Notes under the pieces: model-generated
What the model was told of the DNA's origin: nothing
What the model saw: the letters and a program-made list of their open reading frames with translations, nothing else
Database searches by the model: none
Translations under genes and position numbers: made by a program
Shown here: positions 27,925 through 63,431 of the stretch, piece by piece
Position numbering within the stretch: position 1 is the stretch's first letter
How the letters are laid out: the number at the start of each line of letters is the position of its first letter
Source of the DNA: a virus
Virus record (IMG/VR): IMGVR_UViG_3300037516_000306
Span: 1 to 64,000 of that record
Reading direction: 5' to 3' (one strand)
DNA: 64,000 nucleotides

Positions 27925-29967
27925 TTAGTTATATTTATTCAACCATCCACCTGGTTGTGGTTTGTTATAGTTTGTAAAGTTAGTTAGATTATCTAAGTTA
28001 ACCAAACCTTTTTGTTCTTGTCTTAATCCATTCTGAGCCATAGGATATTCAGTTACCTTCTTTCCTTTGAACTTATAATTCTTTCCTGGTTTCATTAGTT
28101 TAGTATCACCAGTATCAGATATACCTAACAGTGGTTGATCTACTCCTTCCATTGTTATTTTATTAGAACCTATCTCAACAGGACTTCCCCAATTATCAGG
28201 ATTCCAATATCCCATATCATCTTTAACAACTCCTCCATCTTCATAGCTATCTAACCATCCACCATTCTTACTAATGCTCTTAGGTTTCCAATCTAATCCC
28301 TCTTGATAGAATTTCATCTCTTGACCATTCTGTGCTACATAAGTTTCTTGTTCAGGTTGTTTATTCTGTGCAATATTATTCATTAGCCAGATTAAATCTT
28401 TATCTGAATAGTTTTTTAACAAACGATCTTTTGCAAATGTTTTCCTTGCTTTTTTTAAATGCCCTTCATTAAAATCTTCTTTACCTGCATCATATATTCC
28501 TTGTTGTTTTAAATTATATCTAAAAGAATTTAAATCAGCTTTATTTTCATATGGATCTTGATCATGTTCATTTATACCTTTTGATCTACCACCTCTCTTA
28601 ATTAAATTATCTACATCTTTTTTATTTAATCTAAAGTCAAAATCATTTTCTCCTGTAGGATCTAATCTTTGTACTTCAGCATGACCAAGTTCATGTGACT
28701 CAGTTTCATTTATTGTAGGTGATGTAAACTTAGAATTTTTGTATATATCTTTATGTAGGAGTGCATCATTCTTTTCATTTAAATGTATTATGTTTTCATC
28801 TAAATTATAATGACTACTATATTTATCAAAGTCACCAGAATCCCACATCTTATTCATTTCATAAGCTTCATTAGGTATTGGTTCAATCTTTGTATTTTTT
28901 ACATTACCACTTCTAATTCTAATTTCCTTTGGTACATTTTCGTATCCAGATTTAGTTAATCTTTCTTTATACTTAGGGGAATTAATATAATCTAAAGTCC
29001 ATTGTTTAACTGGATCAGAGTTTACAGTTTTTATTTTATATGAATTATCTTTAATTATTGGACCAAGATTTAAACCTTCTTGTGCACTAGCCATTGTTTT
29101 CTTTGCATACTTCCCATTGCTAGGAGCAGGAGATTGTGTACGTGCATATGAGAAACCTACAGCTCCTGGAATAGAACCACCCATCTGTGCTTGAGGAACA
29201 TAGTTAACTGGATAAACATATCCACCCATTTGATAATTAGGAGTGTTAGGATTAGCAAATGTATTATGAGGATTTCCTCTACCAGTTATAATTGCACGAG
29301 GAGGAGGTGCTTCACTTTCTACAGTTTTTACTTTTTGTTTATTTTTACCATTATATAAATCTTCTGGATTAGGCATCATTCTTCTAATACCATCTTCATT
29401 TACTGAATTATAATCATTAAAATTAAAACCATTATTAGTATAGTAGTTTGAAAATATTTCTTGATTAGTTCTTGTATCTTCATCTTCTATAACTTGAACA
29501 TCATGCCAAGGCATATACTCATCATCATAATTATTCATACCATAATCAACAGAATCTTTTGTTCTTGTATAATGTGGATTGAAAGTATTTAAATTACTTG
29601 CACTATCATCACCATATGTTTCATATTGATTTTTGTTTCCAAATATATTTTCAGTTAGATTTAAATCTGTTCCAGATAAAACTCCACCCATTTGAAATTG
29701 TCCACCCCATGCAGGAGAATAGTTTCTACCTTTGGTGTTATTACCCATACCAACAAATCCTTCTGGTAATGACACAGAAGAATCATTATAATTCTCTTGG
29801 TGTTCTTGCATTGTTCCACCATTAGCATAGCTATCTAGCCAACCACCATTTTTCATGTTGTTAGAATTATCTCTACCACACTCATGACATATGTACATAT
29901 CTTTCTTACTAGAATCAGATTTGTTCCATGACCATCCACATGTGCATTTTACTTTACCACTACTCAT
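27925..29967 (-). CDS. Zinc-ribbon and HELGH metallopeptidase-like virion protein
   Basis: 680 residues; the ATG overlaps the upstream stop (TAATG). Residues 8-30 form a zinc ribbon (C8xC10 ... C27HEC30). HELGH at H425-H429 (ETESHELGHAEVQ) is a zincin-type motif, the third HExxH in this cluster. The sequence NGGWLDSYxxGG occurs twice (just after the zinc ribbon and in the last third), and the protein ends in GGWLNKYN. A segment with TMEGVDQPLLGISDTGD and FKGKKVTEYPM near the C-terminus is a module I have seen in other crAss-like proteins. Probably packaged with the polymerase; whether it cleaves virion or host proteins is unknown. Confidence 0.7.
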   Translation of the reverse strand: MSSGKVKCTCGWSWNKSDSSKKDMYICHECGRDNSNNMKNGGWLDSYANGGTMQEHQENYNDSSVSLPEGFVGMGNNTKGRNYSPAWGGQFQMGGVLSGTDLNLTENIFGNKNQYETYGDDSASNLNTFNPHYTRTKDSVDYGMNNYDDEYMPWHDVQVIEDEDTRTNQEIFSNYYTNNGFNFNDYNSVNEDGIRRMMPNPEDLYNGKNKQKVKTVESEAPPPRAIITGRGNPHNTFANPNTPNYQMGGYVYPVNYVPQAQMGGSIPGAVGFSYARTQSPAPSNGKYAKKTMASAQEGLNLGPIIKDNSYKIKTVNSDPVKQWTLDYINSPKYKERLTKSGYENVPKEIRIRSGNVKNTKIEPIPNEAYEMNKMWDSGDFDKYSSHYNLDENIIHLNEKNDALLHKDIYKNSKFTSPTINETESHELGHAEVQRLDPTGENDFDFRLNKKDVDNLIKRGGRSKGINEHDQDPYENKADLNSFRYNLKQQGIYDAGKEDFNEGHLKKARKTFAKDRLLKNYSDKDLIWLMNNIAQNKQPEQETYVAQNGQEMKFYQEGLDWKPKSISKNGGWLDSYEDGGVVKDDMGYWNPDNWGSPVEIGSNKITMEGVDQPLLGISDTGDTKLMKPGKNYKFKGKKVTEYPMAQNGLRQEQKGLVNLDNLTNFTNYNKPQPGGWLNKYN

Positions 29968-30833
29968 TACTTATAAGATATTTGTGCAGGTGCTGTTATA
30001 AATTGAGACACTAGATGAGTTGTTGAACTGTTATCTAGTATATGTCTCACCTTTAATTCTTTTGCTCTTAGCGTTGCTTTCTTAAAGCTCTTAGGGCCAT
30101 AGTCCATATTAGCTTGATTAACTATCTTATCAATAGAAAGATTTTCACAAGTTGTTCTAAATAATGGAATCTGAGAACTTATCTCTGCAGCCCAGAATGT
30201 ATTGTACTGATAGAAGTTATCACTCTTAGTATAAGTGATAGTTTTACTCTCAGCATTCAATATAGGATACTGCATGTATGCATGTAAGTTATGAAGAGGT
30301 TTAGCTACAAGTTCTAATATACCAGAACTCTGCTGTCCGTTATATAAGATAGCTTTATTAAACCATTTATCATTTGTTTCTATTCTTGTATTATCATCAA
30401 ACACTCCATCAAATATAGGATAGTATTCATATGCTTTTGTATAATCTTTTACATTCTGTAATATTTCATCTTGGTATTGATACGCAAAAGGATACTCAAT
30501 AATATATGGTTCTATAGTTCCATAGAATGTATTATAAAGTCTTATATTAGTTAAGTGTCTCCATAAACAAGCTGTAACAGATTGTGTGTATGTTGTATTT
30601 ATAAACTCTACAGTATCAAATGATTCTAATTTAAAAGTATTTTCTATAGTACAATTTCCTACAGATTTTATAATTATAGCATTTACATTATTATTAACTT
30701 CATAACTCACTCCTCTAATAAGAGTTTTCTTAGGAACATTTTCAGCTATGATATTTCCACGATCATCCAATATGTTGAATGGTCCTGCAGAAGGTCCAGC
30801 TTGTTTCAATTTTATTGTTATAATCTTTGACAT
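29967..30833 (-). CDS. Muzzle C-terminal-domain protein with adaptor-type N-terminus
   Basis: 288 residues. The first 65 residues (ITIKLKQAGPSAGPFNIL ... IIKSVGNCTIENTF) are homologous to the starts of the 83- and 436-residue fibre genes, sharing a GPFN motif, a middle SYxV/GT stretch and a late CTxxx motif. The remainder (KWFNKAILYNGQQSSG, YTKSDNFYQYNTFW, IVNQANMDYGPKSFKKA) resembles what I recall as the terminal part of crAss-like muzzle/stabilisation proteins, which here would be encoded separately. It directly follows the 525-residue gene (stop TAA, two bases, ATG) and its own stop overlaps the next start. Function as part of the tail muzzle is inferred. Confidence 0.7.
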   Translation of the reverse strand: MSKIITIKLKQAGPSAGPFNILDDRGNIIAENVPKKTLIRGVSYEVNNNVNAIIIKSVGNCTIENTFKLESFDTVEFINTTYTQSVTACLWRHLTNIRLYNTFYGTIEPYIIEYPFAYQYQDEILQNVKDYTKAYEYYPIFDGVFDDNTRIETNDKWFNKAILYNGQQSSGILELVAKPLHNLHAYMQYPILNAESKTITYTKSDNFYQYNTFWAAEISSQIPLFRTTCENLSIDKIVNQANMDYGPKSFKKATLRAKELKVRHILDNSSTTHLVSQFITAPAQISYK

Positions 30834-30835
30834 AA

Positions 30836-32413
30836 TTATGGAGCAGTAGTGGTTGTTGTTGTTGTTATATCAGCTATAGAACTTATCACACAGCTTCCTA
30901 CTTGAGTAGCTGAATTTAAAGCAGTTACAGTTATACTTGATGTATCTGTAATATTTCTATATGTATCAATGATTGATTGAGGATTAGATTTAATTATTAC
31001 ATAAATATTTCCATCTACATCTGTTACATATATGTTACACTGACATTCGTATATAGAAGTAGGAGAGAATGCACCTACATTAATATCTACTAAAAGTGTT
31101 CCTGTAGCATAGTCATATTCTGATATGTAATAATCTAATGTTACACTATCTTTGTTGATAATTAATAACTCACCAGTTTGTACATATAACATATTACCTT
31201 GTGCCACTCTATTTGTTTGTAATGTAAACTTAATAGTGTTAGATGCAGTTAATGTAGCGATGTCTAATTCTGTAACCTCTTGTGGAGATGGTGCATCATT
31301 TACAGCAATCAATGTAGTGTCATCTAAAGCAACTATTCCTGATGATGTAGTAAATCCACCTGAGAAAGAAATTGCTCTGTTAAATGTAGCATTAAATGGA
31401 GATAGAGTGATATCCCATTCTTGTATATCAGTATCAATAGACCAAAGCTTATTAGTTGTCATAGCTATTCCTAGAGATGATATATATCCTGGAACATCTA
31501 TAGGTTGTATAGAATCAGTGATACTATTAACATAATAGTAAACAACATCACCTGATGTAAATAATATACCACAACATTCTGAAATAACTGGAGGTAATGT
31601 AGTAGTGGTGGTAGTAGTCTCACAACCACAGTTTGATATTTCTACAATAATACCATCTACAATATGATATATGTAATCTTGAATAGAATACATATTAGGT
31701 AGAGTTGATACACTATACCAACCATCTGGTAAATAAGTACAATAAATAAATGCTGCATTATATACATACTCTCCTAATATAGGAAGAGCTGTTACATCTT
31801 GCGTAGTGTATGTAGCTCCAAAGAAAGAAGTTAATACTATATCTACATTATCAGGACTTAAAGATGTTTGTACAACTGGTACAGCATCACATGCATCCTG
31901 AAGAGTTAATGAAGAATCAACTGGAGGATCTATTCCTATTGTATATCCTTGAACAAATGTAAATACATTTAGATCTGTAGGTGTAAGACATACAGTGGTG
32001 GTACTTGTTGTAGTTGGATAAACTGTAATCACTCCTGTTCCATCTAATTCACAATCTGTTGTTACACCAAATCCATCTAAATCACAATACAATAATGTAG
32101 TGGTATGCGTAGTGGTTGGTTGTGGTGCTCCTGTAGTAGTTGTTGTAGTGCTTGGTGGTAAAGGTTTTGTCATAATTCCAACAAGAGCTTGAAATCCTCC
32201 TCCAGCAGAAGAATCATCACAACATCCATTAAGTCCTGAATAAAAGAAATTATTTTCTCCTATATAAAAATTAGGAATATAAGTATGAAAAGAAATCCAA
32301 CTTCCAGTATTTAAATTATATGACATGGTCCAAGATTTATTACAAAAATAATCTGGATCTGATAAGTAAACTTTCGTTCTTATTACTACTGGTATTTTAT
32401 TTTCGTCAGCCAT
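30836..32413 (-). CDS. Muzzle continuation protein with Thr linkers and propeller-like domain
   Basis: 525 residues. The first 65 residues (IRTKVYLSDPDYFCNKSW, WISFHTYIPNFYIG, FFYSGLNGCC) look like the direct continuation of the muzzle protein encoded just upstream, whose product ends in YDSKFDRVIITKQDY plus a short tail. Then come modules separated by Thr-rich linkers (TTTTTTGAPQPTTTHTTT, TTTSTTT, ETTTTTTTLPP). A region of about 200 residues has repeated strands reminiscent of a beta-propeller (LGIAMTTNKLWSIDTD, GGFTTSSGIVALDDTTL). The protein ends in a run of seven Thr, then AP, stop. The gene lies 14 bp after the 1481-residue gene. Virion tail component by context. Confidence 0.75.
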   Translation of the reverse strand: MADENKIPVVIRTKVYLSDPDYFCNKSWTMSYNLNTGSWISFHTYIPNFYIGENNFFYSGLNGCCDDSSAGGGFQALVGIMTKPLPPSTTTTTTGAPQPTTTHTTTLLYCDLDGFGVTTDCELDGTGVITVYPTTTSTTTVCLTPTDLNVFTFVQGYTIGIDPPVDSSLTLQDACDAVPVVQTSLSPDNVDIVLTSFFGATYTTQDVTALPILGEYVYNAAFIYCTYLPDGWYSVSTLPNMYSIQDYIYHIVDGIIVEISNCGCETTTTTTTLPPVISECCGILFTSGDVVYYYVNSITDSIQPIDVPGYISSLGIAMTTNKLWSIDTDIQEWDITLSPFNATFNRAISFSGGFTTSSGIVALDDTTLIAVNDAPSPQEVTELDIATLTASNTIKFTLQTNRVAQGNMLYVQTGELLIINKDSVTLDYYISEYDYATGTLLVDINVGAFSPTSIYECQCNIYVTDVDGNIYVIIKSNPQSIIDTYRNITDTSSITVTALNSATQVGSCVISSIADITTTTTTTAP

Positions 32414-32426
32414 TGTTAATCTTTTA

Positions 32427-35400
32427 TTATGGTGTTGTAGTAGTCGTGGTACTTGTAGTGATAGGTTGATTAGTATAAACTATTGACTCAACATAAAACT
32501 CTTTAGTTATAGGATCATATTTTACATCTTTATCAATAGGAATATAATCTTGTTTTGTAATTATCACTCTATCAAACTTACTATCATATACACCATGAAG
32601 TCCTATTCCAGTATAGTTATTATCTATATCAACATTAGGAAAGAATCTAAGTATTTCAAATGCTAAGTGATCTGTCATAAATCTATTTACACCAGAACCA
32701 ACTGCTGTAAGATCTTTAGCTCCTTCATTAGTTATTAAAAACACTTGTCCTCTTTTAGCATCTACAGTTACTTGTCCTTGTGGTATCTTCAATAAGAACT
32801 TATTCTGACTTCCTACATATCCAAGATCTGTTTCAGCAAAATCAATAGGTGGAGTTTCTCCAAATAATTTAGTTCCTCCTAAATAAGCAGCTTTTGGATT
32901 TGTAGAATCCATTGTTAATAATTTGTTATACAACAATGATTTGTTTTCAAATCTAGCAAGTACAGCTTTATCCTGAATACCATCTAATGATGTAAGCTTT
33001 CCATAGTTTTGAGGAAAATCAAATAATGCTAATGGGGCATAACTTAACCAATTGTTAACTCTTATATCAGCATTTTGTTCTTGTGAATCAGAATAGATTG
33101 CTCTAAATGGATAATATGTATAACATAATTGACTAGTCCAATCTGCTGGTAGATGTGAAAAGAAGTTTTCTTTATTCTGTTTAGAGAATGTTACATTATA
33201 ATAATATGTATTATCATAAGCAATTGTTGTAAACTCTTCTTGTACCCAATCATCAGGAATACCTGTAGATACATGTGGCCAGAAGTTTCCTTCTCTATCA
33301 TTGAATGCTTGTCTTAAATTTAAATTATAAGAAGTCTCACAATAAAAATTAGGAATACCATATGCAAATAAATAAAACTTACCATCATAAAATGTTCTAT
33401 ATGTACCAGCTGGTCCTCCAACAGTTGTAGGAGCTTTACTAGGATCACTAGGACAATCAAAGTTGTGAGCTTTAATTGATATAATGTTAGTCATTGTTTG
33501 GTAGTTATACAAAATAGATCTAGCAGAATGCCAGAATTTTGGATAAGCTACGTTACCTATTTCATCATAGAATATATCACTATCATCTAATCCATTCACT
33601 CTATTATCTATAAAGAATGGAAGTTTTGTTTTGTATGCAAATCTAGAAATAAATGTATCTCCACCAAACACTACATCATTTGAAAAACCACTATCAAAAA
33701 ATCTTTGGAATCCTGTGTCAATTGTTTCATATGAATATATTTGTCCCCATTGGTTTACAAATATATTTTTCAATGAAGCATAATATACTACAGTTGTAAT
33801 GTCTTGTTCTTTCTCAGGTGTGTTACAATAGTTTCTACCTGTAAGAGGATCTATATTACTAGAGATTGTGAATCTAGATTTATCTGTAATTAAAGATGTA
33901 CCTAATGAATTAACAAGTGTTGGTGTTTTATCAGGGAATGGTAATGGCACTACTGAATTAGTTAATGCACCTTTTGTTCTTAAATAAATAGAAGACTCTC
34001 TTTGGTAGTTATTAATGTTTTTATCATCTCCAATATTTTGAACTCCTGGAATCATATAAGATTTTAAATCAAGAGGTCTTTGTTTAATACCAACATTTCC
34101 ATTAATATCTGCAGTGTTATTATTTATATCTGAATAGTAATCATAGTTAGCTACAGAGTTAAATGAATACGCATAATTCTTTCTTGTAATACCATTTACA
34201 TAAATAGTTAGATATGCTTGGTATGCTGTAAATACAGCTGTTATATCTAGACCACCAATAGTAAATGATGCTTTTAATGCATCTTCTTGAACCTCTTTAG
34301 AAAGAAGTCTATATTTAGCATTACCTTTCACTTTGACAAAATGTGCTCTACCTCCACCAAACATTACATTTTCTAACTTAAGAACATCTCCTAAGAATGG
34401 TTGTGCAAAAGAAGTTTCAGGAGAATTAAACACTTGTCTATATCTAGAACTATCACTAGTTATAGGAGGAAGTGGTTTAGGATCTCCACAGAATGCATTA
34501 AGTGGTGATCTTCTTCCATACTCTCTTCCTGGAACTACATTTCCAAAAGGAGTTAATGTATTTGGAGGAAACTGTCCTAATGGGGGTGTTACAAAAGGTT
34601 GCTTAGTTGCACAAGGAGCAGGTTGTAAATCTTGTTCTTTAAAAGGAACTGAGTTTAAATCTAATCTTTGAACATATACAGGACCAATAGCACCTGCACA
34701 AGGATAAGGCATCCATCCCCCCCAATTTAAAGTTTTAAGAGGTTGATTATCATTAGTCCAACGAGTATTACTTCTTAATTTATAACAACTAACACCTGCG
34801 CATGCATTATTAACATACCACACATCATAGTTACCAGGACCTATTGTTGCTTTACCACTTAAATATATTGGTCTTGTTAAAGAACAAAATTCATAAGTTT
34901 CATTAGCAACCATTTGTTTAATTACTTGTTCACCAGTTTCTGGCTCAAAATAACTATAATCACCTGACTCAGTACATACAACCATCCATGGTTCTGTTTG
35001 TCCTAATACAGCATATGAATTACTACTTGCTAATAAGAATGGATCTGTATTAAGATCGTTATATGGATAGTTTGGATAGTATAAAGTTTGATCTTGTCTT
35101 TGGTATGTTCCTACATTACGGAGCATTCCTTTAGCTACAATAGATTTATTTGTATTTCTATTACCTCTTACAATTTTAAATCCTACAACATCATCTTTTT
35201 GATCTTGTGTAAGACCTGTTGATGTTTGTATAAGTGTTTCTATTTGTTTAATATTAACTTTTACACCTAATGGATATACAGCATTATTTTGCATCACTGG
35301 TTGAAACCCAGGAGTTAATGAATATACAGGATTCTCAAATATAGGACTTACAAGAACATCTGGAAACTTATGATGTCTAATAGGTTTACCAGCAAGATCA

Positions 35401-36872
35401 CCCCATACATCAACATTACAAGGATACTCTTCTGTAGACTCCCAATAAGCAAACTCACCATATTGATATGGTGTAGCATTATTAATATTAGGACCAGTAG
35501 CATTACCTATGACAGTAGCTGTATTATATATTTTCCAATAAGAACTATATCCTATTCCTGTAACAGGATCGATATAATCAGGCTCACCTATAAAATCAGC
35601 ATTAGTATTTGGTACATCTGGATATTGTAAATCAGCATAAGTTAATGTTCTTCCAGGAATATGGAACCCATCTGTTTGTTTTCCATTCTTTAATAAGAAT
35701 ACAATCTCAAATGCATACACCTCATCACGTAGATATCCACGTAGGTTTGTAGCATTTAATTCATCACCATAATTTTCATTGGAAGGAATTCTGTATGTCT
35801 CCCATAATAAATCTATTTGAGATGCTATTTGTTGATAATTAATTCTATCTATAGATGTAAGATTATCCCATACAAGAACATCTTGTACAGCTGTAAGATC
35901 TTGTGCTATATCATAGTATGGATACTTCTCAAATATATCTGATGGAGAAAGATTAATAAGTGTATTATTCTGTCCAGTATATGTTATTGTGTCAACTTGA
36001 TTCTCAATTGAATATGTACCAACTAATTCTATAGTGGTAATATTATTAACTGTTTTAATTACAGCTACATTATAATATTGAAATAACCCTGTTGTATCTA
36101 AATTAGTAATACTAACTTCTATAGATCTACCCACTTTATAATCAAATATAGCTGTGGTTAATTGCGTATCAGCAATTGGTGTAGGATTTGTAACAGAGTA
36201 ATATGATGTGTAAGGATTACCAGATGCATTAGCATATTGAATAGCAAACTGATATGTACCAGCAGTAAGATCTCCACCACTAGCTATATCTGATATAGTA
36301 AGTTGTGGAATATTAAAATTAGGTTGTATTTTTAATTGATTACAATCTAATTGATTTGTATATGTAGGGTCACAAGGATCTGAAGTAGGAGTTTGTAAAT
36401 ATGGAATATTTTCAATATCTAAATATCTTCTTGGATTTAATCCATCTGTCCAATATATTTCTGTAGTGCAATTACTTATTTTATGTACAACTTTATGTAT
36501 AGGATTGTTCTCATTAAAATTAAGACATGCAGCTTCTACTAATGTACGGTAGATACAATCATTGTTATCCATATATCCTATTTGACTCATCCCTAGTTGA
36601 GGATTTACAACAAAGAATATATGTTTGCTTTTTTCTGCAATAAAGTGTCTACCAATTAACATGTATCCAGAAGGAAAACTTATACAAAGTTCATTCCCTT
36701 GTTCATTTTGATAATTAATAGAACTTGCATCAAAGTTTTCTAAGGCAGCATTTAATGCATATGTAAGAGTACCTGGTTTAATCTGGTTCAAAGTTTGATC
36801 CATATTTAAACCAATAGATCCACTATTAATTTCTATCCTTATATTACTTTGTTCTTTTTCTTGATCAGCCAT
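32427..36872 (-). CDS. Muzzle / tail stabilisation protein, main part
   Basis: 1481 residues. The N-terminus (INSGSIGLNMDQTLNQIKPGTLTYALNA is the region; key motifs are NMDQTL and IKPGTLTYALNA), then YWTDGLNPRRYLDIENIP and VWDNLTSIDRINYQQ, match the very large tail stabilisation/muzzle proteins that cap the tail of crAss-like podoviruses. Length is in the family range, but the C-terminal part seems to have moved into the next two genes: this product stops after ITKQDYIPIDKD plus a Thr tail (ITTSTTTTTTP). It lies 5 bp after the 324-residue gene in a tight operon. Likely forms the outer tail barrel and plug; family-level call, not atom-level. Confidence 0.8.
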   Translation of the reverse strand: MADQEKEQSNIRIEINSGSIGLNMDQTLNQIKPGTLTYALNAALENFDASSINYQNEQGNELCISFPSGYMLIGRHFIAEKSKHIFFVVNPQLGMSQIGYMDNNDCIYRTLVEAACLNFNENNPIHKVVHKISNCTTEIYWTDGLNPRRYLDIENIPYLQTPTSDPCDPTYTNQLDCNQLKIQPNFNIPQLTISDIASGGDLTAGTYQFAIQYANASGNPYTSYYSVTNPTPIADTQLTTAIFDYKVGRSIEVSITNLDTTGLFQYYNVAVIKTVNNITTIELVGTYSIENQVDTITYTGQNNTLINLSPSDIFEKYPYYDIAQDLTAVQDVLVWDNLTSIDRINYQQIASQIDLLWETYRIPSNENYGDELNATNLRGYLRDEVYAFEIVFLLKNGKQTDGFHIPGRTLTYADLQYPDVPNTNADFIGEPDYIDPVTGIGYSSYWKIYNTATVIGNATGPNINNATPYQYGEFAYWESTEEYPCNVDVWGDLAGKPIRHHKFPDVLVSPIFENPVYSLTPGFQPVMQNNAVYPLGVKVNIKQIETLIQTSTGLTQDQKDDVVGFKIVRGNRNTNKSIVAKGMLRNVGTYQRQDQTLYYPNYPYNDLNTDPFLLASSNSYAVLGQTEPWMVVCTESGDYSYFEPETGEQVIKQMVANETYEFCSLTRPIYLSGKATIGPGNYDVWYVNNACAGVSCYKLRSNTRWTNDNQPLKTLNWGGWMPYPCAGAIGPVYVQRLDLNSVPFKEQDLQPAPCATKQPFVTPPLGQFPPNTLTPFGNVVPGREYGRRSPLNAFCGDPKPLPPITSDSSRYRQVFNSPETSFAQPFLGDVLKLENVMFGGGRAHFVKVKGNAKYRLLSKEVQEDALKASFTIGGLDITAVFTAYQAYLTIYVNGITRKNYAYSFNSVANYDYYSDINNNTADINGNVGIKQRPLDLKSYMIPGVQNIGDDKNINNYQRESSIYLRTKGALTNSVVPLPFPDKTPTLVNSLGTSLITDKSRFTISSNIDPLTGRNYCNTPEKEQDITTVVYYASLKNIFVNQWGQIYSYETIDTGFQRFFDSGFSNDVVFGGDTFISRFAYKTKLPFFIDNRVNGLDDSDIFYDEIGNVAYPKFWHSARSILYNYQTMTNIISIKAHNFDCPSDPSKAPTTVGGPAGTYRTFYDGKFYLFAYGIPNFYCETSYNLNLRQAFNDREGNFWPHVSTGIPDDWVQEEFTTIAYDNTYYYNVTFSKQNKENFFSHLPADWTSQLCYTYYPFRAIYSDSQEQNADIRVNNWLSYAPLALFDFPQNYGKLTSLDGIQDKAVLARFENKSLLYNKLLTMDSTNPKAAYLGGTKLFGETPPIDFAETDLGYVGSQNKFLLKIPQGQVTVDAKRGQVFLITNEGAKDLTAVGSGVNRFMTDHLAFEILRFFPNVDIDNNYTGIGLHGVYDSKFDRVIITKQDYIPIDKDVKYDPITKEFYVESIVYTNQPITTSTTTTTTP

Positions 36873-40463: not shown

Positions 40464-40715
40464 TTAAGTTAAGGTAGTTGTAGTGGTTGTTGTCACTTGA
40501 TCTAGTACTATATCTATATAGTTAGTACAATCTCCTGTTGATAACACTCTAACTACTGTTGTGTAATCAGGAACTAAAGAAGAAGAATATCCTGTAAGTA
40601 AAGCTGTTTTATCTACTCCTGATTCAAATGCTGTTACATATCCATCTAGATTTGAATACAGGTTGAAGGGGCCTGAATCAGCCCCAGCAACTGTTAATGT
40701 TATTAATACTGTCAT
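40464..40715 (-). CDS. Small adaptor-domain protein with Thr tail
   Basis: 83 residues consisting of one domain: it shares TVLITLT, GPFNLYS, DGYV and CTNYIDI with the N-terminus of the upstream 436-residue gene, then ends in a Thr run (QVTTTTTTTLT) and a stop. It looks like a fibre gene that kept its virion-attachment domain and linker but lost its distal modules, or a capping version of the protein. An intrinsic terminator follows within 60 bp. Confidence 0.7.
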   Translation of the reverse strand: MTVLITLTVAGADSGPFNLYSNLDGYVTAFESGVDKTALLTGYSSSLVPDYTTVVRVLSTGDCTNYIDIVLDQVTTTTTTTLT

Positions 40716-40732
40716 ATATTATTGATTTTAAA

Positions 40733-42043
40733 TTAAAACGGACAAGGTCCTATTATATTAAATAGTACACCTCCTGTTGAGTAAACATTAGTTGCACAGC
40801 CAGTACCTGTTTCACCTGGTCCATAAGGAACAGTAGAGACAACACCTGTGTCACAATCAGTCACAACTAAATCTCCTCCAACATCTCCTGAATCATAAGA
40901 ATATTCAAAACAATATCCTGTACAACCTGCTCCTTCTGTTGTGTCTGCTGGAAAGTTATCACTAATTAAAGGAGATTGAGCACATATTGTTATTGAAGGA
41001 TCTAGTTCTCCTAAATTAATAGTAAGTGGAGTTGATCCACCACATGGTGTGTATTGTACTGTATGTATCTCACCAGCAACTGGATCTATTAGATATTGTG
41101 CACATGTAGGAATACCTGTAGTTGTACTTGTAGTTGTAGATGTAGATGGTGTTGGTATACAGCATGGACCGAAAGCTTCTACAGTAAAGGATACAGTTGC
41201 TGATAATGAATTTCTATTCAAACATGCAGGATCATCAAGACCAATAAATACGTTTGGACCTGAAACTATAGCTACTGATTTAGGAGTACCAAAACAATCT
41301 TCATAGTTAAATGTACCAGCTCCATCTGCAATAATACTTACATACTCAACACATGGACACACAGTAGTAGTGGTTGTAGTTGTTGGCGGTATAGTAGTAG
41401 TAGTAGTTGTTGTTTGACAAGCTCCTAAAATACAAGGATCTCCAACTGTAATTATTACACTAGGATCATTCGCAGATGGTAGAGATCCACAAAGTTTTAC
41501 AGTTTCATTACCACCAATACCTATATTGAATAGTTCAACATTATCACAAGTAGTATATCCAAACAAATGAGGATTTTCATCTGTATTTACAAATGTTAAA
41601 CAATTACAAGCAATAACTGTTGTTGTTGAAGTTGTTGTACTAGAACTACTTGTAGTAGTTGATGTAGTACTACTTGAGGTACTAGTTGTTGTACTTGTAG
41701 GAGGAACAGTAGTTGTACTAGTTGATGTAGAACTACTTGTACTGGTTGTAGTGCTCGTAGGAGGAACTGTAGTAGTAGATGTAGTTGTACTACTAGAACT
41801 GGTAGTAGTAGTTGTAGTAATTAAATTGATTGGTATATCAATATAATTTGTACATGGTGCAATAGATCTCACTCTAATGATTGTTGTTCCAGGAGGTACA
41901 TTAAATGATATAAATCCAGCTGTTAAAACAAGTGCAGATATATTTGTTTCAAATGGTAGGACATACCCATCTGTATCTGAATAAAGATTAAAAGGACCTG
42001 CAATCCCACCAGGTGGTATGGTTAATGTTATTAAGACTGTCAT
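40733..42043 (-). CDS. Modular fibre protein with Thr/Ser linkers
   Basis: 436 residues. Residues 1-72 are the adaptor domain shared with the 83- and 288-residue genes. A Ser/Thr-rich linker follows (about residues 73-143, with PPTSTTTSTSSS repeated). Then come about four Cys-containing modules of 55-65 residues (CNCLTFVNTDENP..., CPCVEYVSIIADG..., CAQYLIDPVAG..., CFEYSYDSGDV...), the first three separated by further TTTT linkers. Similar modules occur in the 537-residue gene. Likely an extended virion fibre in which each bead is an exchangeable binding unit; the ligand is unknown. Confidence 0.75.
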   Translation of the reverse strand: MTVLITLTIPPGGIAGPFNLYSDTDGYVLPFETNISALVLTAGFISFNVPPGTTIIRVRSIAPCTNYIDIPINLITTTTTTSSSSTTTSTTTVPPTSTTTSTSSSTSTSTTTVPPTSTTTSTSSSTTSTTTSSSSTTTSTTTVIACNCLTFVNTDENPHLFGYTTCDNVELFNIGIGGNETVKLCGSLPSANDPSVIITVGDPCILGACQTTTTTTTIPPTTTTTTTVCPCVEYVSIIADGAGTFNYEDCFGTPKSVAIVSGPNVFIGLDDPACLNRNSLSATVSFTVEAFGPCCIPTPSTSTTTSTTTGIPTCAQYLIDPVAGEIHTVQYTPCGGSTPLTINLGELDPSITICAQSPLISDNFPADTTEGAGCTGYCFEYSYDSGDVGGDLVVTDCDTGVVSTVPYGPGETGTGCATNVYSTGGVLFNIIGPCPF

Positions 42044-42079
42044 ATTTTTATATGTTAATTTATGTTAATTTATATTAGT

Positions 42080-42379
42080 TTATGATAATTGATTAGCAGT
42101 TCCAGTAAAGTCACATACATTACAACATACAGCAAGTTGATTATATATGTCAGTTATATTATTATTAATATTTGTTATACTGTTGTTAATATCTGTTACA
42201 TTTATTGTAATTTCATTTACACCAATTATAGCATCACATATAATAGCATCAAACTTAGCAAGGATAGTATTTAAATTATCACATGTATTCACATCTGAAC
42301 AAGGAAGTGGAGTACCATCATATGTGATAGTACTCGTTCCTTGTATTGTTGTATTATTTATTTGAGAGCAATTTCCCAT
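42080..42379 (-). CDS. Short fibre head protein, truncated relative of the 537-residue gene
   Basis: 99 residues. It aligns with the N-terminal part of the upstream 537-residue protein: TSTITYDGTPLPC versus SSTIVYDGPALSC, then a helix with NLNTILAKFDAIIC versus TLNVILQKIDEIIC, then NITDIYNQLAVCC versus NITNIYNILGECC. It ends with CDFTGTANQLS; CNFTGTANQLP occurs far inside the larger protein. This points to duplication and recombination between neighbouring genes. The Asn/Ile heptad pattern suggests a trimeric coiled coil. Confidence 0.7.
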   Translation of the reverse strand: MGNCSQINNTTIQGTSTITYDGTPLPCSDVNTCDNLNTILAKFDAIICDAIIGVNEITINVTDINNSITNINNNITDIYNQLAVCCNVCDFTGTANQLS

Positions 42380-42412
42380 TTTAAATTTTTATTTAAATTA
42401 CTGTTGCTTGTA

Positions 42413-44026
42413 TTAATCTTGTATTAATCTTACTGAGAAACCAAGTGTTGGAGTACTACCAAAATTTCTATAAACAATTCCATCAGCAGGAGTCATTAGG
42501 CGATAATAATAATCTGTAGAAGGAAGAAGTGATGAAGGCCACCAATTACCACTAAAACCAAGATTACTAAATGCACCAAAACTATCTCGTAGACCTCCTC
42601 CAAGTGCTGAAAAGCCAGTACTATTAGTAGCATCTATATTATTAACATTCCAGTGACATAATCCTGTTTGTTTTAATGCACTACCAGCAACGCTTGAACC
42701 TCCTAAAAATGTAGTTAGCGTTGTCCATTCTGCATCACTTGGAACATGATAACCTGTTGGAGCTAATCCCCTTGGATCATTTACAGCGTACCAGTTGTAT
42801 ATTTTTCCATAAATTGGTCCATTTGCTGAATCATTATTGTAGTAACACCATGCAGGAGTAGTTAATGCTGCCCAAGCAGTTGGATCACTTACTTCTGGAA
42901 TAGGATCACCATTTGCAAAAGTAGTAATATTTAGATTACATCCAGTCCACACTTGAGTTCCAATTGTTACATTACCTGGTATACAATTTACACATACAGT
43001 TGTTGTTGTAGTAGTTGTTGGTGCTACAGTGGTAGTAGATGTAGTAGTAGAACTAGAACTACTAGTTGTTGTTGTAGTTGTTGGATCTGGAAGTTGATTA
43101 GCAGTTCCAGTGAAGTTACAATTTGGTATAGCAGTTGTTGTTGTAGTAGTTGTAATTCCAGGACATAATCCACCAATACAATCAGCTCCAACTGTAATTA
43201 ATACAAGATCACTGTCTGCAGATGCACAACATCCACAAAATTGTGATGTTTGATTTGCAGCAATTGTAAAATCAATAGGCTCTCCAAGACAATTATTATA
43301 TAAAATATTATGGCTTGCACTACTATCTGTATTTTCAAATGTCAAACATTCACAAGGAATTGGTGTTGTTGTTGTAGTGGTAGTAGGTGCTATTGTCGTA
43401 GTACTAGTTGATGTTGATGATGTTGTACTTGTAGTTGGAGGAAAGCAAGGACCATTTGGAATCACTATAATAGTTCCAGGAACAGTTAGAGGACTATCTG
43501 TTACAACACAAATATTTGTATCTCCTGGATATAGTATAATAGCGTCTGGCTCTTGTGTTGTACAATCAGTAATAATTATAGCTACTGGTACATCTCCTGT
43601 ATTAGTTAATGAGAAGTTTTCACAAAGACGTATTGTTGTTGTACTTGTTGTAGTAGGTACAGCAGTAGTAGAAGTTGTTGTTGTACAACATTCACCTAAT
43701 ATATTATATATGTTAGTAATATTATTGTTGATATTAGTAATCTCATTCTTAATATTAATAATTTCAATATTTAATATATTAATCTGTGTTAATAGATTAC
43801 ATATAATCTCATCAATCTTTTGTAATATCACATTAAGTGTATCACATGGTTCAGCTGTCGTACAACTTAATGCAGGACCATCATAAACAATAGTGCTAGA
43901 AGCAGTTAAATGAGTACCACATGGATTGTTACAACCACCATTGGTGATTGTAGAACTACATCCACAAGGACTATTTAAAACTACATCTGTACAGCAAGGA
44001 TTTACTGGTAAATATGGATATGCCAT
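42413..44026 (-). CDS. Modular fibre protein with FISUMP (lectin-fold-like) tip
   Basis: 537 residues. A Cys-rich head (about 1-60) leads into an Asn/Ile coiled coil (70-115). Thr linkers and two Cys modules follow (ENFSLTNTGDVPV and CECLTFENTDSSA types). The C-terminal 180 residues are a Fibrobacter-succinogenes-major-paralogue domain: IGTQVWTGCNLNITTF, YCYYNNDS, YGKIYNWYAV, PTGYHVPSDAEWTTL, STGFSALGGGLRD and a final GFSVRLIQD. This fold is related to C-type-lectin/formylglycine-enzyme-like domains, and in Bacteroidota it occurs in surface proteins. Here it is the likely receptor-binding tip. No variable-repeat cassette or reverse transcriptase is in the window. Confidence 0.8.
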   Translation of the reverse strand: MAYPYLPVNPCCTDVVLNSPCGCSSTITNGGCNNPCGTHLTASSTIVYDGPALSCTTAEPCDTLNVILQKIDEIICNLLTQINILNIEIINIKNEITNINNNITNIYNILGECCTTTTSTTAVPTTTSTTTIRLCENFSLTNTGDVPVAIIITDCTTQEPDAIILYPGDTNICVVTDSPLTVPGTIIVIPNGPCFPPTTSTTSSTSTSTTTIAPTTTTTTTPIPCECLTFENTDSSASHNILYNNCLGEPIDFTIAANQTSQFCGCCASADSDLVLITVGADCIGGLCPGITTTTTTTAIPNCNFTGTANQLPDPTTTTTTSSSSSTTTSTTTVAPTTTTTTTVCVNCIPGNVTIGTQVWTGCNLNITTFANGDPIPEVSDPTAWAALTTPAWCYYNNDSANGPIYGKIYNWYAVNDPRGLAPTGYHVPSDAEWTTLTTFLGGSSVAGSALKQTGLCHWNVNNIDATNSTGFSALGGGLRDSFGAFSNLGFSGNWWPSSLLPSTDYYYRLMTPADGIVYRNFGSTPTLGFSVRLIQD

Positions 44027-44038
44027 TTTATTGATTTA

Positions 44039-45160
44039 TTAATAAGGTTTATACATAATCCAATAACAAGCTGTTACTGGTTGAATGTTTGAATGAGGAA
44101 GTCCTCCACCTGCTGGACCAGCTACATTATTTATTGAAACTGTAATTCCTGTTGATGCTGGTGCTGTAAAAAATGTAGATTGCAAAGGTGTATTATTAGT
44201 ATTTGCATTCTGAAATTGTCTTGTAGTACTACCTGTATCCAATATTCCCAATACACCTTTTCCAGTTGGTCCAACTTGATGTGTGTGTGTAGGATCATTA
44301 ACAATTGCTGTATTAGCATGTGTATGTAAAGGAATTTGTGTAGATGATAATGTAATTTGATTTGCACCAACTTCATCAAAAATAGCATAGTTTGGATTAC
44401 CAGATCCAGGACTTGGAAGAACAGATGGATCTAGTGAATTTCCAGGAACATTAACAATTGCACCTGTTAAAGCTCTACCTCTTAAATCAGGAGTTCCATT
44501 CTCTCCATTACATAGATATATTTTTTCCCAAGGACTACCTATTATACCAGCTCCTGTACTATTAAAATATGAAAGAGATCCAAAATAAGGAACCACTGAG
44601 AATGGAACCATTTTATTACTAATTAATCCAGTAGATAAACTATCTAAATAATCTTGGATTAATGTGTTAAGTTGATCTAATTGTACATACGTATCTGGTA
44701 GATCCATTACTAACTGATCAAACTCATCTCTTAATGTACAAAGTGCAGTGATTGTAGCTTGTAATACAGAATGTGTATCTGAAGAACTTGTTACTCCTGT
44801 TAAACATCCAACATTATAATCTCCATTCAATATTGCAAGTTCTGCTACAATAACATCAACTTGATCTTGAAGATCACAAGTAGATTTTATAATAGCTGAT
44901 AGTATATCATTTAATGAAAGATCTCCACAGTTAGGTAGATTTGCTTGAACTAAATCACAAATAATCTGAGGATCAATAATAGGTTTGATTCCTGTACCAT
45001 CTATTGCAGATGTAAGGAATGTAATCAATGCTTGTTCTACAAATGATAATGAATCACCAGTTTGAATTCCTAGGACAGGAACATCTATTCCTGTATATTT
45101 AACACATCTGTCAGAGACAATCTCTGTACATCCGTTATAACAATTTGAGCAATTGGACAT
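44039..45160 (-). CDS. Tail-collar-domain fibre protein
   Basis: 373 residues. The N-terminus has the crAss-like fibre head (CVKYTGIDVPVLGI, GDSLSFVEQAL) and a helical shaft. From about residue 185 it is a phage tail collar domain: PWEKIYLCNGENGTPDLRGR, two HTH motifs (IPLHTHANT, PTHTHQVG) and a terminal SNIQPVTACYWIMYKPY. Collar domains occur in T4 gp12-type short fibres and microcystin-dependent-protein relatives. A host-binding fibre is the best call. It sits between two Thr-linked modular fibre genes but has no Thr linker itself. Confidence 0.85.
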   Translation of the reverse strand: MSNCSNCYNGCTEIVSDRCVKYTGIDVPVLGIQTGDSLSFVEQALITFLTSAIDGTGIKPIIDPQIICDLVQANLPNCGDLSLNDILSAIIKSTCDLQDQVDVIVAELAILNGDYNVGCLTGVTSSSDTHSVLQATITALCTLRDEFDQLVMDLPDTYVQLDQLNTLIQDYLDSLSTGLISNKMVPFSVVPYFGSLSYFNSTGAGIIGSPWEKIYLCNGENGTPDLRGRALTGAIVNVPGNSLDPSVLPSPGSGNPNYAIFDEVGANQITLSSTQIPLHTHANTAIVNDPTHTHQVGPTGKGVLGILDTGSTTRQFQNANTNNTPLQSTFFTAPASTGITVSINNVAGPAGGGLPHSNIQPVTACYWIMYKPY

Positions 45161-45188
45161 GTTATTTTATTTTAAGTTATTGTTTATA

Positions 45189-46352
45189 TTATAAAGCATC
45201 AAAGTGCGTATAGATTGTTCTAATTCCACTTGGAGCTAATGTTGTTGTTGTGCTTGTAGTTGAACTAGTAGAACTTGTTGTTGTACTTGTTGAACTACTG
45301 CTAGTAGTGGTAGTAGATGAAGTAGGTTCAATACCACATATATACATATCAAATCCAGTTCCATTTAAACTTCCAGGATTATTTCCTGTTATTGTAATTG
45401 TATTGAAAGGTGCATCTGCAACCACTTCAATATTTCCTCCTGTACGCTGTTCTGGTGAAGGCATAGAACCTGCAACAACATTTGGAGCTTCAACTCTAAA
45501 GTCATTACATCCAGCTAATTCTGTTACTACTGTATTTGCAGCATTTGTTGTAAATGTATAATATTCTGATATACCTAATTGGTCAGCATAACCCATTCCA
45601 TACATTACAAATTTTACTGCAGTTTGAGCAGTACTATATGTTATTGTAAATGTAAAAGCTCCATCACTATAATTTAAAAAAATTGATCCACCTGTTCCAA
45701 CATCTCCACCAAATTGTCCACCTACACAATTAATAAAAGGAGGACTTGGTAAACTAAGTAGTGGTAACGCTCCTGTATATGTAGTGCTAACTACTAATCC
45801 AGAACTAAGTGTCATAGTTCCATCACCTGTATATCTATTTGGAAAACCTACAGGACCATAATAACCAACAGGACATCCTGCTGTAGAATTACTTGTGGTA
45901 GATGTAGTAGTTGTACTTGTTGAACTTGAACTTGTTGTTGTTGTAGTTGGTATTGCAGTTGTACTAGTACTGGTTGTAGATGTACTAGTTGAACTTGTAG
46001 TAGTTGTAGTTCTTACAGGATTTGGTACAATAATAATATCACAAGGTTCCTCTAAACAACGTTCTGGTTCATTACATCTACTAACACATCCTAATGTAAG
46101 ACGTATCACTCTACTAGCTATCATCTTAACAGAGTACTTACATACGTAGTTAGGATTACAATACTTATAAGTTAATATTCTCCTGTAACCTATTAACTGA
46201 AGAATGTCATCAGCAGGTACTGGTTTATTTAACATATACGATATGTTATTATATAAATTATTGCCAAGCTCAGCTAACTTACAATCTATCTTTTTAAGTA
46301 AAGAAGGTATATCAGCGCATTCTGGGCAATTATTTAGTCTTGGTGATAACAT
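45189..46352 (-). CDS. Modular virion protein with central beta domain between Thr/Ser linkers
   Basis: 387 residues. Residues 1-115 are a conserved head with paired cysteines (CPECADIPSLLKKIDCKL, CVSRCNEPERCLEEPC). A Ser/Thr linker (about 115-160) leads to a single beta-rich domain of about 190 residues (GNIEVVADAPFNTITITG, GTGFDMYICGIEP). A second Ser/Thr linker and a short C-terminal peptide (IRTIYTHFDAL) follow. The central domain looks like an insertion flanked by identical-type linkers, because the conserved head and the short tail would otherwise adjoin. Function as capsid or tail fibre inferred. Confidence 0.7.
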   Translation of the reverse strand: MLSPRLNNCPECADIPSLLKKIDCKLAELGNNLYNNISYMLNKPVPADDILQLIGYRRILTYKYCNPNYVCKYSVKMIASRVIRLTLGCVSRCNEPERCLEEPCDIIIVPNPVRTTTTTSSTSTSTTSTSTTAIPTTTTTSSSSTSTTTTSTTSNSTAGCPVGYYGPVGFPNRYTGDGTMTLSSGLVVSTTYTGALPLLSLPSPPFINCVGGQFGGDVGTGGSIFLNYSDGAFTFTITYSTAQTAVKFVMYGMGYADQLGISEYYTFTTNAANTVVTELAGCNDFRVEAPNVVAGSMPSPEQRTGGNIEVVADAPFNTITITGNNPGSLNGTGFDMYICGIEPTSSTTTTSSSSTSTTTSSTSSTTSTTTTLAPSGIRTIYTHFDAL

Positions 46353-63105: not shown

Positions 63106-63427
63106 GGGGGTGACTGGTTTTGACAGGTTACCAATAATTAGTACAATCAGCCAGAGAGATAACTGTAAACTAAGGTGAATTGATTAAATGGCAAAAACAC
63201 AAGTCGTGTAGTGTCTCTAGGAGATAACGCACAAGTAGAAGCTAACATGAACAAAGTATTCTCTCTATTGGGAGAAGAAGTTGCTGTAGCAGCCTAAATT
63301 AATGAGATTTCTCTATTAGATTAAATAGAGTGGTGGATTATCTCAAGCCTAGCTTGACCCTAAATAAGCTGTATAAATTGTATTAATGAACGTAGTTTGG
63401 ACAGGAGTTCGACTCTCCTCACCTCCA
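63106..63427 (+). ncRNA. ssrA: tmRNA (transfer-messenger RNA)
   Basis: The 5' end GGGGGTGACTGGTTTTGACA and the 3' end (GGAGTTCGACTCTCCTCACC, then TCC-A) are the tRNA-like halves of a tmRNA. GGGGGTGA pairs with TCACCTCC, and AGGAG/CTCCT forms the T stem around TTCGACT. The internal message ends at TAA 63295-63297; its last codons read LLGEEVAVAA, a typical hydrophobic degradation tag end. The frame is open from at least GGA at 63220, which would give a 25-residue tag; the exact resume codon is uncertain. CCA is not encoded. A terminator follows at 63432. It would rescue stalled ribosomes, perhaps with phage-altered tag specificity. Confidence 0.88.
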
Positions 63428-63431
63428 CAAT

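What the first reader, a model, noticed from the sequence alone, without database searches (positions are those of the whole stretch)
29967..36872. Muzzle/stabilisation protein appears split into three genes, with Thr tails at the breaks
Seen: the 1481-residue product ends in YDSKFDRVIITKQDY and a Thr tail. The next gene starts with IRTKVYLSDPDYFCNKSW and WISFHTYIPNFYIG. The third carries KWFNKAILYNGQQSSG and MDYGPKSFKKA. From memory of crAss-like muzzle proteins these three pieces normally follow each other in one chain. Here each break has an added Thr-rich tail, and pieces two and three have gained new modules (propeller-like domain, adaptor domain). The break may have allowed foreign domains to be displayed on the tail tip. 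The homology order is inference.
Basis: partly seen in the sequence, partly recalled or inferred. Interest (0 to 1): 0.7.

Follow-up and report, generated by a model that had tools for sequence, protein, structure and literature searches.

The report
Phage tail-tip protein split in three
In a large, uncultured group of crAss-like phages, the protein that forms and gates the tail tip is encoded as two or three separate genes instead of one, and interchangeable, probably cell-binding domains are attached on threonine-rich linkers exactly where the chain was cut.

Summary
The finding holds. The 1481-, 525- and 288-residue products are consecutive parts of the crAss-like muzzle protein, which is one chain in every reference phage checked (Lbo-JY46, phi17:2, csAssE-Sib, FpV4, crAss001 gp44). 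The structure predicted for the 288-residue piece has one significant PDB match, the cryo-EM muzzle.

The second break (B) exists in all 132 sampled distinct relatives of one clade and arose once. The first break (A) changed state about 13-14 times on the tree, also in a second lineage mostly without Thr tails. Both breaks map to the last two blade-like segments of the gp44 propeller.

Material at the breaks is modular: Thr linkers carrying Fib_succ_major, a beta-propeller, Ig/PKD/LRR domains, or whole extra genes with a shared N-terminal domain. Near-identical phages differ by clean swaps whose edges fall in Thr tracts and at the start of the 288-residue gene. The window's first Thr tail looks like a linker that lost its Fib_succ_major head.

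All muzzle parts remain under equal purifying selection, so the three chains most likely still build one muzzle. That step, and display in the virion, is inferred. New variant of a known kind.

The parts
32427..36872 (-). Piece 1: muzzle N-terminal and central part (1481 aa), up to site A
   Evidence: crAss_MUZ PF25731 E 1.2e-36; phrog_37948 E 3.9e-97; aligns with single-chain muzzles
32430..32459 (-). Thr tail of piece 1 (TTSTTTTTTP): linker without a head
   Evidence: Sister phages carry Thr linker + Fib_succ_major here
32414..32426 (-). Spacer TAAAAGATTAACA at break A; AAAGATTAA matches the KD-stop end of the Fib_succ_major module kept in L004
   Evidence: Spacer comparison; relic reading is inference
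32225..32380 (-). Muzzle segment 2 (piece 2 residues 12-63), between sites A and B
   Evidence: phrog_15100 1546-1586, phrog_37948 2050-2099; corresponds to gp44 about 1183-1232
31619..31990 (-). Piece 2 module 1 (residues about 142-265), inserted after site B, between Thr linkers
   Evidence: Module family shared with many loci; AF2 strands at pLDDT about 71-91
30899..31576 (-). Piece 2 beta-propeller module (residues about 280-505)
   Evidence: AF2 pLDDT mostly above 90, Foldseek to YWTD/YncE-type propellers E about 1e-7 to 1e-6
30839..30868 (-). Thr tail of piece 2 (ITTTTTTTAP)
   Evidence: Thr runs in 127 of 132 site-B tails
30836..32413 (-). Piece 2 gene (525 aa): muzzle segment 2 plus displayed modules
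30585..30833 (-). N-cap of piece 3 (residues 1-83), a shared N-terminal domain
   Evidence: Same family in 120 piece-3 orthologues, 33 inserted-gene units and two other window genes, nearly always N-terminal
29967..30584 (-). Muzzle C-terminal part (piece 3 residues 84-288 and stop)
   Evidence: phrog_15100 1588-1780; sole significant PDB fold match 7qol_P, crAss001 muzzle, E 5.5e-5
29967..30833 (-). Piece 3 gene (288 aa)
40464..40715 (-). Related gene: N-cap plus Thr tail only (83 aa)
40733..42043 (-). Related gene: N-cap plus Thr-linked modules (436 aa)
42413..44026 (-). Tail gene with Thr-linked modules and C-terminal Fib_succ_major (same family as the site-A heads of sister phages)
   Evidence: PF09603 E 2e-38; up to 58% identity to the site-A module of L024

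Best explanation
The muzzle of this crAss-like phage is made from three polypeptides. Shown: piece 1, residues 12-63 of piece 2 and residues 84-288 of piece 3 are consecutive segments of the single-chain muzzle; the cuts map to the last two blade-like segments of the beta-propeller region (gp44 about 1179-1183 and 1232); the cut sites carry exchangeable Thr-linked domains and genes; all three muzzle segments stay under purifying selection. Inferred: the pieces are co-translated, re-assemble non-covalently into one hexameric muzzle whose propeller is closed in trans, and the new chain ends project adhesin-like domains from the tail-tip surface. Route, partly reconstructed: a single-chain ancestor; one fission at B bringing a Thr-linked tail and a new start with an N-cap; repeated fissions (or imports of split alleles) at A through cassettes of linker + domain + stop + start; in the window, loss of the Fib_succ_major head at A, leaving a bare Thr tail.
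For: Contiguous profile matches. Single-chain references. Foldseek of piece 3 to the cryo-EM muzzle 7qol_P, E 5.5e-5, the only significant PDB hit, and to crAss stabilization proteins. Loci classified (A/B): joined/split 187, split/split 36, joined/joined 48, split/joined 8. Tree of 175: B one change, A 14; second tree of 76: B 1, A 13. Site-A split in a distant lineage with Ig/PKD/LRR domains, no Thr runs in 4 of 5. Mapping to gp44. Conservation: mean identity of segments 1/2/3 75/73/69% versus 41% for the N-cap; median dN/dS 0.187/0.175/0.147. Natural experiments: L157 vs L185 (cassette present only in the split member), L004 vs L081 (clean 644-bp difference, Fib_succ_major module), L130 vs L146 (one module on its own N-cap gene, or fused to the muzzle through the Thr linker, about 97% DNA identity), L305 vs L315 (99.7% identical core, whole insert swapped). 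Left edges in Thr tracts 28/38 versus 9.2 expected; right edges at the piece-3 start 40/48 versus 2.8 expected.
Against: No virion or protein data exist for any split phage; no isolate in the phage collection was found with this split. A three-chain complex could not be predicted with the tools. The piece-3 match to gp44 has TM 0.33 by query length (N-cap included). In the piece-2 model segment 2 alone is poorly predicted (pLDDT about 38-52), as expected for an isolated blade fragment but not confirmatory. Receptor binding of the displayed domains is inferred from family names and folds. Changes at A include transfer of already split or joined alleles (L007), so they are not all separate fissions.
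Confidence: 0.8

Rival explanations
1. Pieces 2 and 3 have left the muzzle: after fission they became separate tail or accessory proteins that no longer complete the propeller.
For: Both have gained unrelated modules; no direct proof of assembly exists.
Against: Segments 2 and 3 are as conserved as the rest of the muzzle and under equal purifying selection; they stay next to piece 1 in the loci examined.
Confidence: 0.1
2. The chain is rejoined during or after translation (readthrough, programmed frameshift, splicing or ligation), so one muzzle chain still exists.
For: Spacers are short (13 and 2 nt).
Against: Double in-frame stop at A, different frames, own start codons, an extra N-cap domain on piece 3, and in relatives whole genes between the pieces, up to 866 aa. 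No intein or homing-endonuclease family among 105 scanned tails.
Confidence: 0.03
3. The fissions are neutral by-products: adhesin cassettes with their own stop and start land in permissive loops, and the split chain is merely tolerated, with no benefit from splitting itself. (This concerns why, not what, and is compatible with the three-chain muzzle.)
For: Single-chain phages take in-chain inserts of about 300 aa at site A (phi17:2, FpV4); one inserted cassette is enough to convert joined to split (L157 vs L185); Thr tails can be left bare.
Against: B is never re-fused in 132 sampled members; A splits recur; the right edges of exchanges sit at the piece-3 start, which suggests that separate genes ease exchange. 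None of this proves a benefit.
Confidence: 0.35
4. Assembly or sequencing artefact, or a decaying gene.
For: Thr tracts are repetitive and hard to assemble; a few loci look like simple frameshifts (L050, L062, L265).
Against: 132 distinct members, two identical contigs from separate metagenomes, a public 287-aa homologue in Virus NIOZ-UU157 at 60% identity over its length, dN/dS about 0.15-0.19.
Confidence: 0.02

Closest known systems
crAss001 muzzle protein gp44 (PDB 7QOK/7QOL/8CKB; Pfam PF25731 crAss_MUZ)
   Same: Homologous over all three pieces; piece 3 matches its fold; inserts are known to vary between phages (PMC10172136).
   Different: gp44 is one 1371-aa chain; the published length variation is inside the crass and IG2 regions, whereas here the chain is cut and decorated in the last propeller segments.
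T5-like DT57C/DT571/2 two-gene lateral tail fibre LtfA/LtfB (PMC4728585)
   Same: A single fibre gene of one phage corresponds to two proteins in relatives, both with recognition domains; a deletion can fuse them; repeats lie near the joint.
   Different: That is a peripheral receptor-binding fibre, and LtfB has no homology to T5 proteins; here the core tail-tip gate itself is cut and every segment is kept.
T7 nozzle gp12 propeller
   Same: Same ring-joining and beta-propeller type according to PMC10172136.
   Different: Single chain; no Thr linkers or display domains (own knowledge).
Fib_succ_major/DUF1566 variable proteins of diversity-generating retroelements (PMC4159848)
   Same: The domain at site A of sister phages belongs to a family found among variable binding proteins.
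   Different: No reverse transcriptase was found in this 113.6-kb record; diversity here comes from module exchange.

Membership tests
Crassvirus muzzle protein (PF25731) | Sequence match of the N-terminal and central part over the curated cut-off | tested here: met
   126.8 bits versus cut-off 27
Crassvirus muzzle protein (PF25731) | C-terminal part present with the muzzle fold | tested here: met
   Present, but in another gene: AF2 of piece 3 matches 7qol_P, E 5.5e-5
Crassvirus muzzle protein (PF25731) | One continuous polypeptide | tested here: not met
   Three ORFs in different frames with stops between; so this is a multi-chain variant, not a standard member
Crassvirus muzzle protein (PF25731) | Hexamer at the tail end, gated by a loop in propeller blade 4 | not testable with these tools
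   Needs cryo-EM
Crassvirales-type phage | Conserved structural genes: crass capsid, portal, terminase, ring proteins, muzzle in one block | tested here: met
   Crass_capsid 3.3e-28, CrAss_Ring_2 1.1e-18, CrAss_Ring_1 4e-9, portal phrog_6547 3.1e-91, terminase phrog_6681 1.1e-85
Diversity-generating retroelement system | Reverse transcriptase near a variable target gene | tested here: not met
   No RVT_1 in the 113.6-kb record, which may be incomplete
Split receptor-binding fibre of the LtfA/LtfB kind | Two fibre proteins with separate receptor specificities | not tested
   Resemblance of principle only; binding was not tested

The most novel reading that the evidence does not exclude
A cargo-gating propeller of a phage tail tip is closed in trans by two or three chains, and the cut ends form a plug-in display platform: Thr-encoding tracts act as recombination joints, and the N-cap is a docking domain that lets interchangeable adhesin genes join the tail tip. 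Cutting an essential core gene would then be a recurrent way of swapping receptor binding.
Probability: 0.4. Interest if true: 0.82.

Novelty: new variant of a known kind. Interest (0 to 1): 0.68.

Why it matters
The muzzle is described as a highly conserved hallmark of crassviruses and the gate for DNA and cargo proteins. Finding it cut, once at one loop across a large clade and repeatedly at another, suggests that the gate can be built from separate chains, marks two permissive loops for domain display, and gives a direct explanation for rapid turnover of tail-tip modules in uncultured crAss-like phages. It also warns annotators: the C-terminal muzzle gene and the segment-2 gene will otherwise be filed as unknown proteins, and muzzle-based phylogenies will miss parts.

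Tried and rejected
1) Exchange of piece 3 independently of piece 1: identity of piece 3 to L011 is 93% while the piece-1 core is 75%, but adjacent parts of piece 1 also correlate weakly (Spearman 0.47 versus 0.40 for piece 1/piece 3), so the test is inconclusive. 2) Direct phmmer/hmmsearch of the window muzzle or profile A3 against PDB sequences found no muzzle; only fold comparison did. 3) Searches with the single-chain Lbo-JY46 protein in viral contigs and with piece 3 in bacterial genome contigs gave nothing; piece 1 in plasmids gave nothing. 4) A diversity-generating retroelement as source of variation: no reverse transcriptase. 5) Intein or homing endonuclease as cause of the breaks: no such family among 105 tails. 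6) Readthrough: rejected on the double stop and frames. 7) L050, L062 and L265 look like frameshifts or overlapping stops; L050 and L265 were left out of the second tree, and none is used as evidence. 8) Literature searches found no report of a split crassvirus muzzle; only open-licence papers are held, so this does not prove novelty.
Full report
CHECK. The three ORFs, their motifs and the Thr tails on the first two products are as described. Pfam crAss_MUZ matches piece 1 (E 1.2e-36). PHROG profiles of single-chain muzzles match all three pieces in order: phrog_15100 positions 12-421 (piece 1), 1546-1586 (piece 2 residues 23-63) and 1588-1780 (piece 3 residues 88-285). The last two are adjacent in the profile, so the order is tested, not recalled.

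SINGLE-CHAIN RELATIVES. Leptolyngbya phage Lbo-JY46 (1654 aa), Cellulophaga phage phi17:2 (2289), csAssE-Sib (2263), Flavobacterium phage FpV4 (1961) and MT837925 each hold all parts in one ORF. crAss001 gp44, the solved muzzle, is one chain of 1371 aa. In a MAFFT alignment with the joined chains, site A falls at gp44 about 1179-1183 and site B at about 1232. PMC10172136 places IG2 (residues 318-1021) inside propeller blade 3, so both sites lie in the C-terminal blade-like part; assignment to blades 6 and 7 is my inference from the sequence pattern.

STRUCTURE. AlphaFold2 of piece 3 with 60 sequences gives mean pLDDT 82, with a well predicted N-terminal domain (residues 1-80) and a beta-rich remainder. 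Its only PDB match at E below 0.001 is 7qol_P from the crAss001 tail, the muzzle by entry and chain length (entry listed for gp44). Among viral models it matches a 287-aa protein of Virus NIOZ-UU157 (60% identity, E 6.7e-40), several crAss stabilization proteins and, below that cut-off, a 77-aa protein the size of the N-cap alone. Piece 2 contains a beta-propeller at residues about 280-505 (pLDDT mostly above 90; Foldseek E about 1e-7 to 1e-6).

DISTRIBUTION AND HISTORY. The 321 loci were classified by whether the three muzzle segments share an ORF: 187 are joined at A and split at B, 36 split at both (the window's state), 48 joined at both, 8 split at A only; the rest are incomplete. These counts include repeat retrievals of the same contigs. 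After removal of near-duplicates, a 175-row tree needs one change for B, with 132 split rows in one clade at 100% support, and 14 changes for A. A second tree of 76 rows by IQ-TREE gives 1 and 13. The single chain is the state of all deeper branches, so B was most simply split once. Changes at A are not all separate fissions: L007 is joined inside a split group, and its segment 2, N-cap and piece 3 are 92, 81 and 93% identical to L041 while the core is 75%, so it probably imported that half. The A-only cases (L246, L248, L249, L250, L254) belong to a distant phi17:2-like group; there the second gene mostly starts with a short Cys-rich domain, the first gene has gained Ig, PKD or LRR domains, and Thr runs are absent in four of five. 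Single-chain phi17:2 and FpV4 carry in-chain inserts of about 300 aa at the same site. Site A is thus a permissive loop used repeatedly.

WHAT SITS AT THE BREAKS. Site-B tails have a median of 251 aa (17-1692) and contain TTTT in 127 of 132; 36 loci carry extra genes between the pieces. In 31 of these an extra gene begins with the N-cap that also begins piece 3 and two other tail genes of the window (40464-40715, 40733-42043); 32 of 33 N-cap units in the inserted genes are exactly N-terminal. At site A the sister phages L004, L008 and L019 carry Fib_succ_major on a Thr linker (E 1e-28 to 1e-38); the same family ends the window's tail gene 42413-44026, and it includes known variable proteins (PMC4159848). 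The window, L015, L081, L161 and L174 have bare or nearly bare Thr tails.

HOW MODULES MOVE. Among phages with core identity of 90% or more but different inserts, left edges of divergence fall in Thr tracts in 28 of 38 cases (9.2 expected for random positions) and right edges within 30 nt of the piece-3 start in 40 of 48 (2.8 expected). Edges were counted in both genomes of a pair, pairs share phages, and alignments tend to stop in repeats, so I read this as strong enrichment, not as an exact probability. Four pairs show the steps: L305/L315 (99.7% identical core, entire insert replaced), L130/L146 (the same module on a separate N-cap gene or fused to the muzzle through the Thr linker), L004/L081 (Fib_succ_major module present or absent; the spacer after L081's bare tail still holds AGATTAATACAATG), L157/L185 (linker, domain, stops and new start present only in the split member). 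The window's spacer TAAAAGATTAACA resembles the same relic, so its bare tail is probably a deletion derivative (inference).

FUNCTION KEPT. Segments 1, 2 and 3 have mean identity 75, 73 and 69% across the clade, the N-cap 41%. Median dN/dS over 40 pairs is 0.187, 0.175 and 0.147. Hence the separated parts are kept as strictly as the main chain. The simplest mechanism is re-assembly of the muzzle from three chains, with the Thr-linked domains outside. Assembly, stoichiometry, the role of the N-cap and receptor binding are not shown.

VERDICT. Real, widespread, and not found in the literature held here: a new variant of a known protein. Interest 0.68.

Noticed in passing
window 63106-63428: ARAGORN predicts a tmRNA gene with tag ANMNKVFSLLGEEVAVAA in this phage record; a virus-borne tmRNA is uncommon.
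   Followed up: no
window 41105-46024: Dense Thr-encoding tracts link modules in several tail genes (40733-42043, 42413-44026, 45189-46352), so the Thr-linker system is not limited to the muzzle.
   Followed up: partly
window 40464-40715: An 83-aa protein that is just N-cap plus Thr tail, with no other domain; similar small N-cap proteins occur in L036 (75 aa) and probably Virus NIOZ-UU157 (77 aa).
   Followed up: partly
G000 record, 101731-102354 (outside the window): A second Fib_succ_major domain in this genome (E 3.2e-33).
   Followed up: no
L082 (PP438436.1, 82844-87808): The closest annotated single-chain muzzle is in a phage listed as infecting the cyanobacterium Leptolyngbya boryana, an unexpected host for a crAss-like phage.
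   Followed up: no
L246:12176-17496: In the distant site-A split lineage: Ig and LRR domains on gene 1, an extra gene with repeated S.DG..W-like motifs (propeller-like by eye, no Pfam match) between the pieces, and an insert in gene 2 resembling the in-chain insert of phi17:2.
   Followed up: partly
L150:12856-18895 and L310:6941-16543: Extreme site-B enlargements: about 6.3 kb between segments 2 and 3 in L150, and a single gene with about 1690 extra residues in L310.
   Followed up: no
tails and inserted genes of alignment A5: Among 105 tails and inserted genes, Glyco_hydro_108 and PG_binding_3 (E 1.9e-22 and 9e-11) each match one member, suggesting that cell-wall enzymes can also ride on this locus.
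   Followed up: no
window 27925-29967: The gene after piece 3 begins with a zinc-ribbon-like Cys stretch and has a segment matching a tail-protein family (phrog_24249, E 2.2e-30); possible cargo protein.
   Followed up: no
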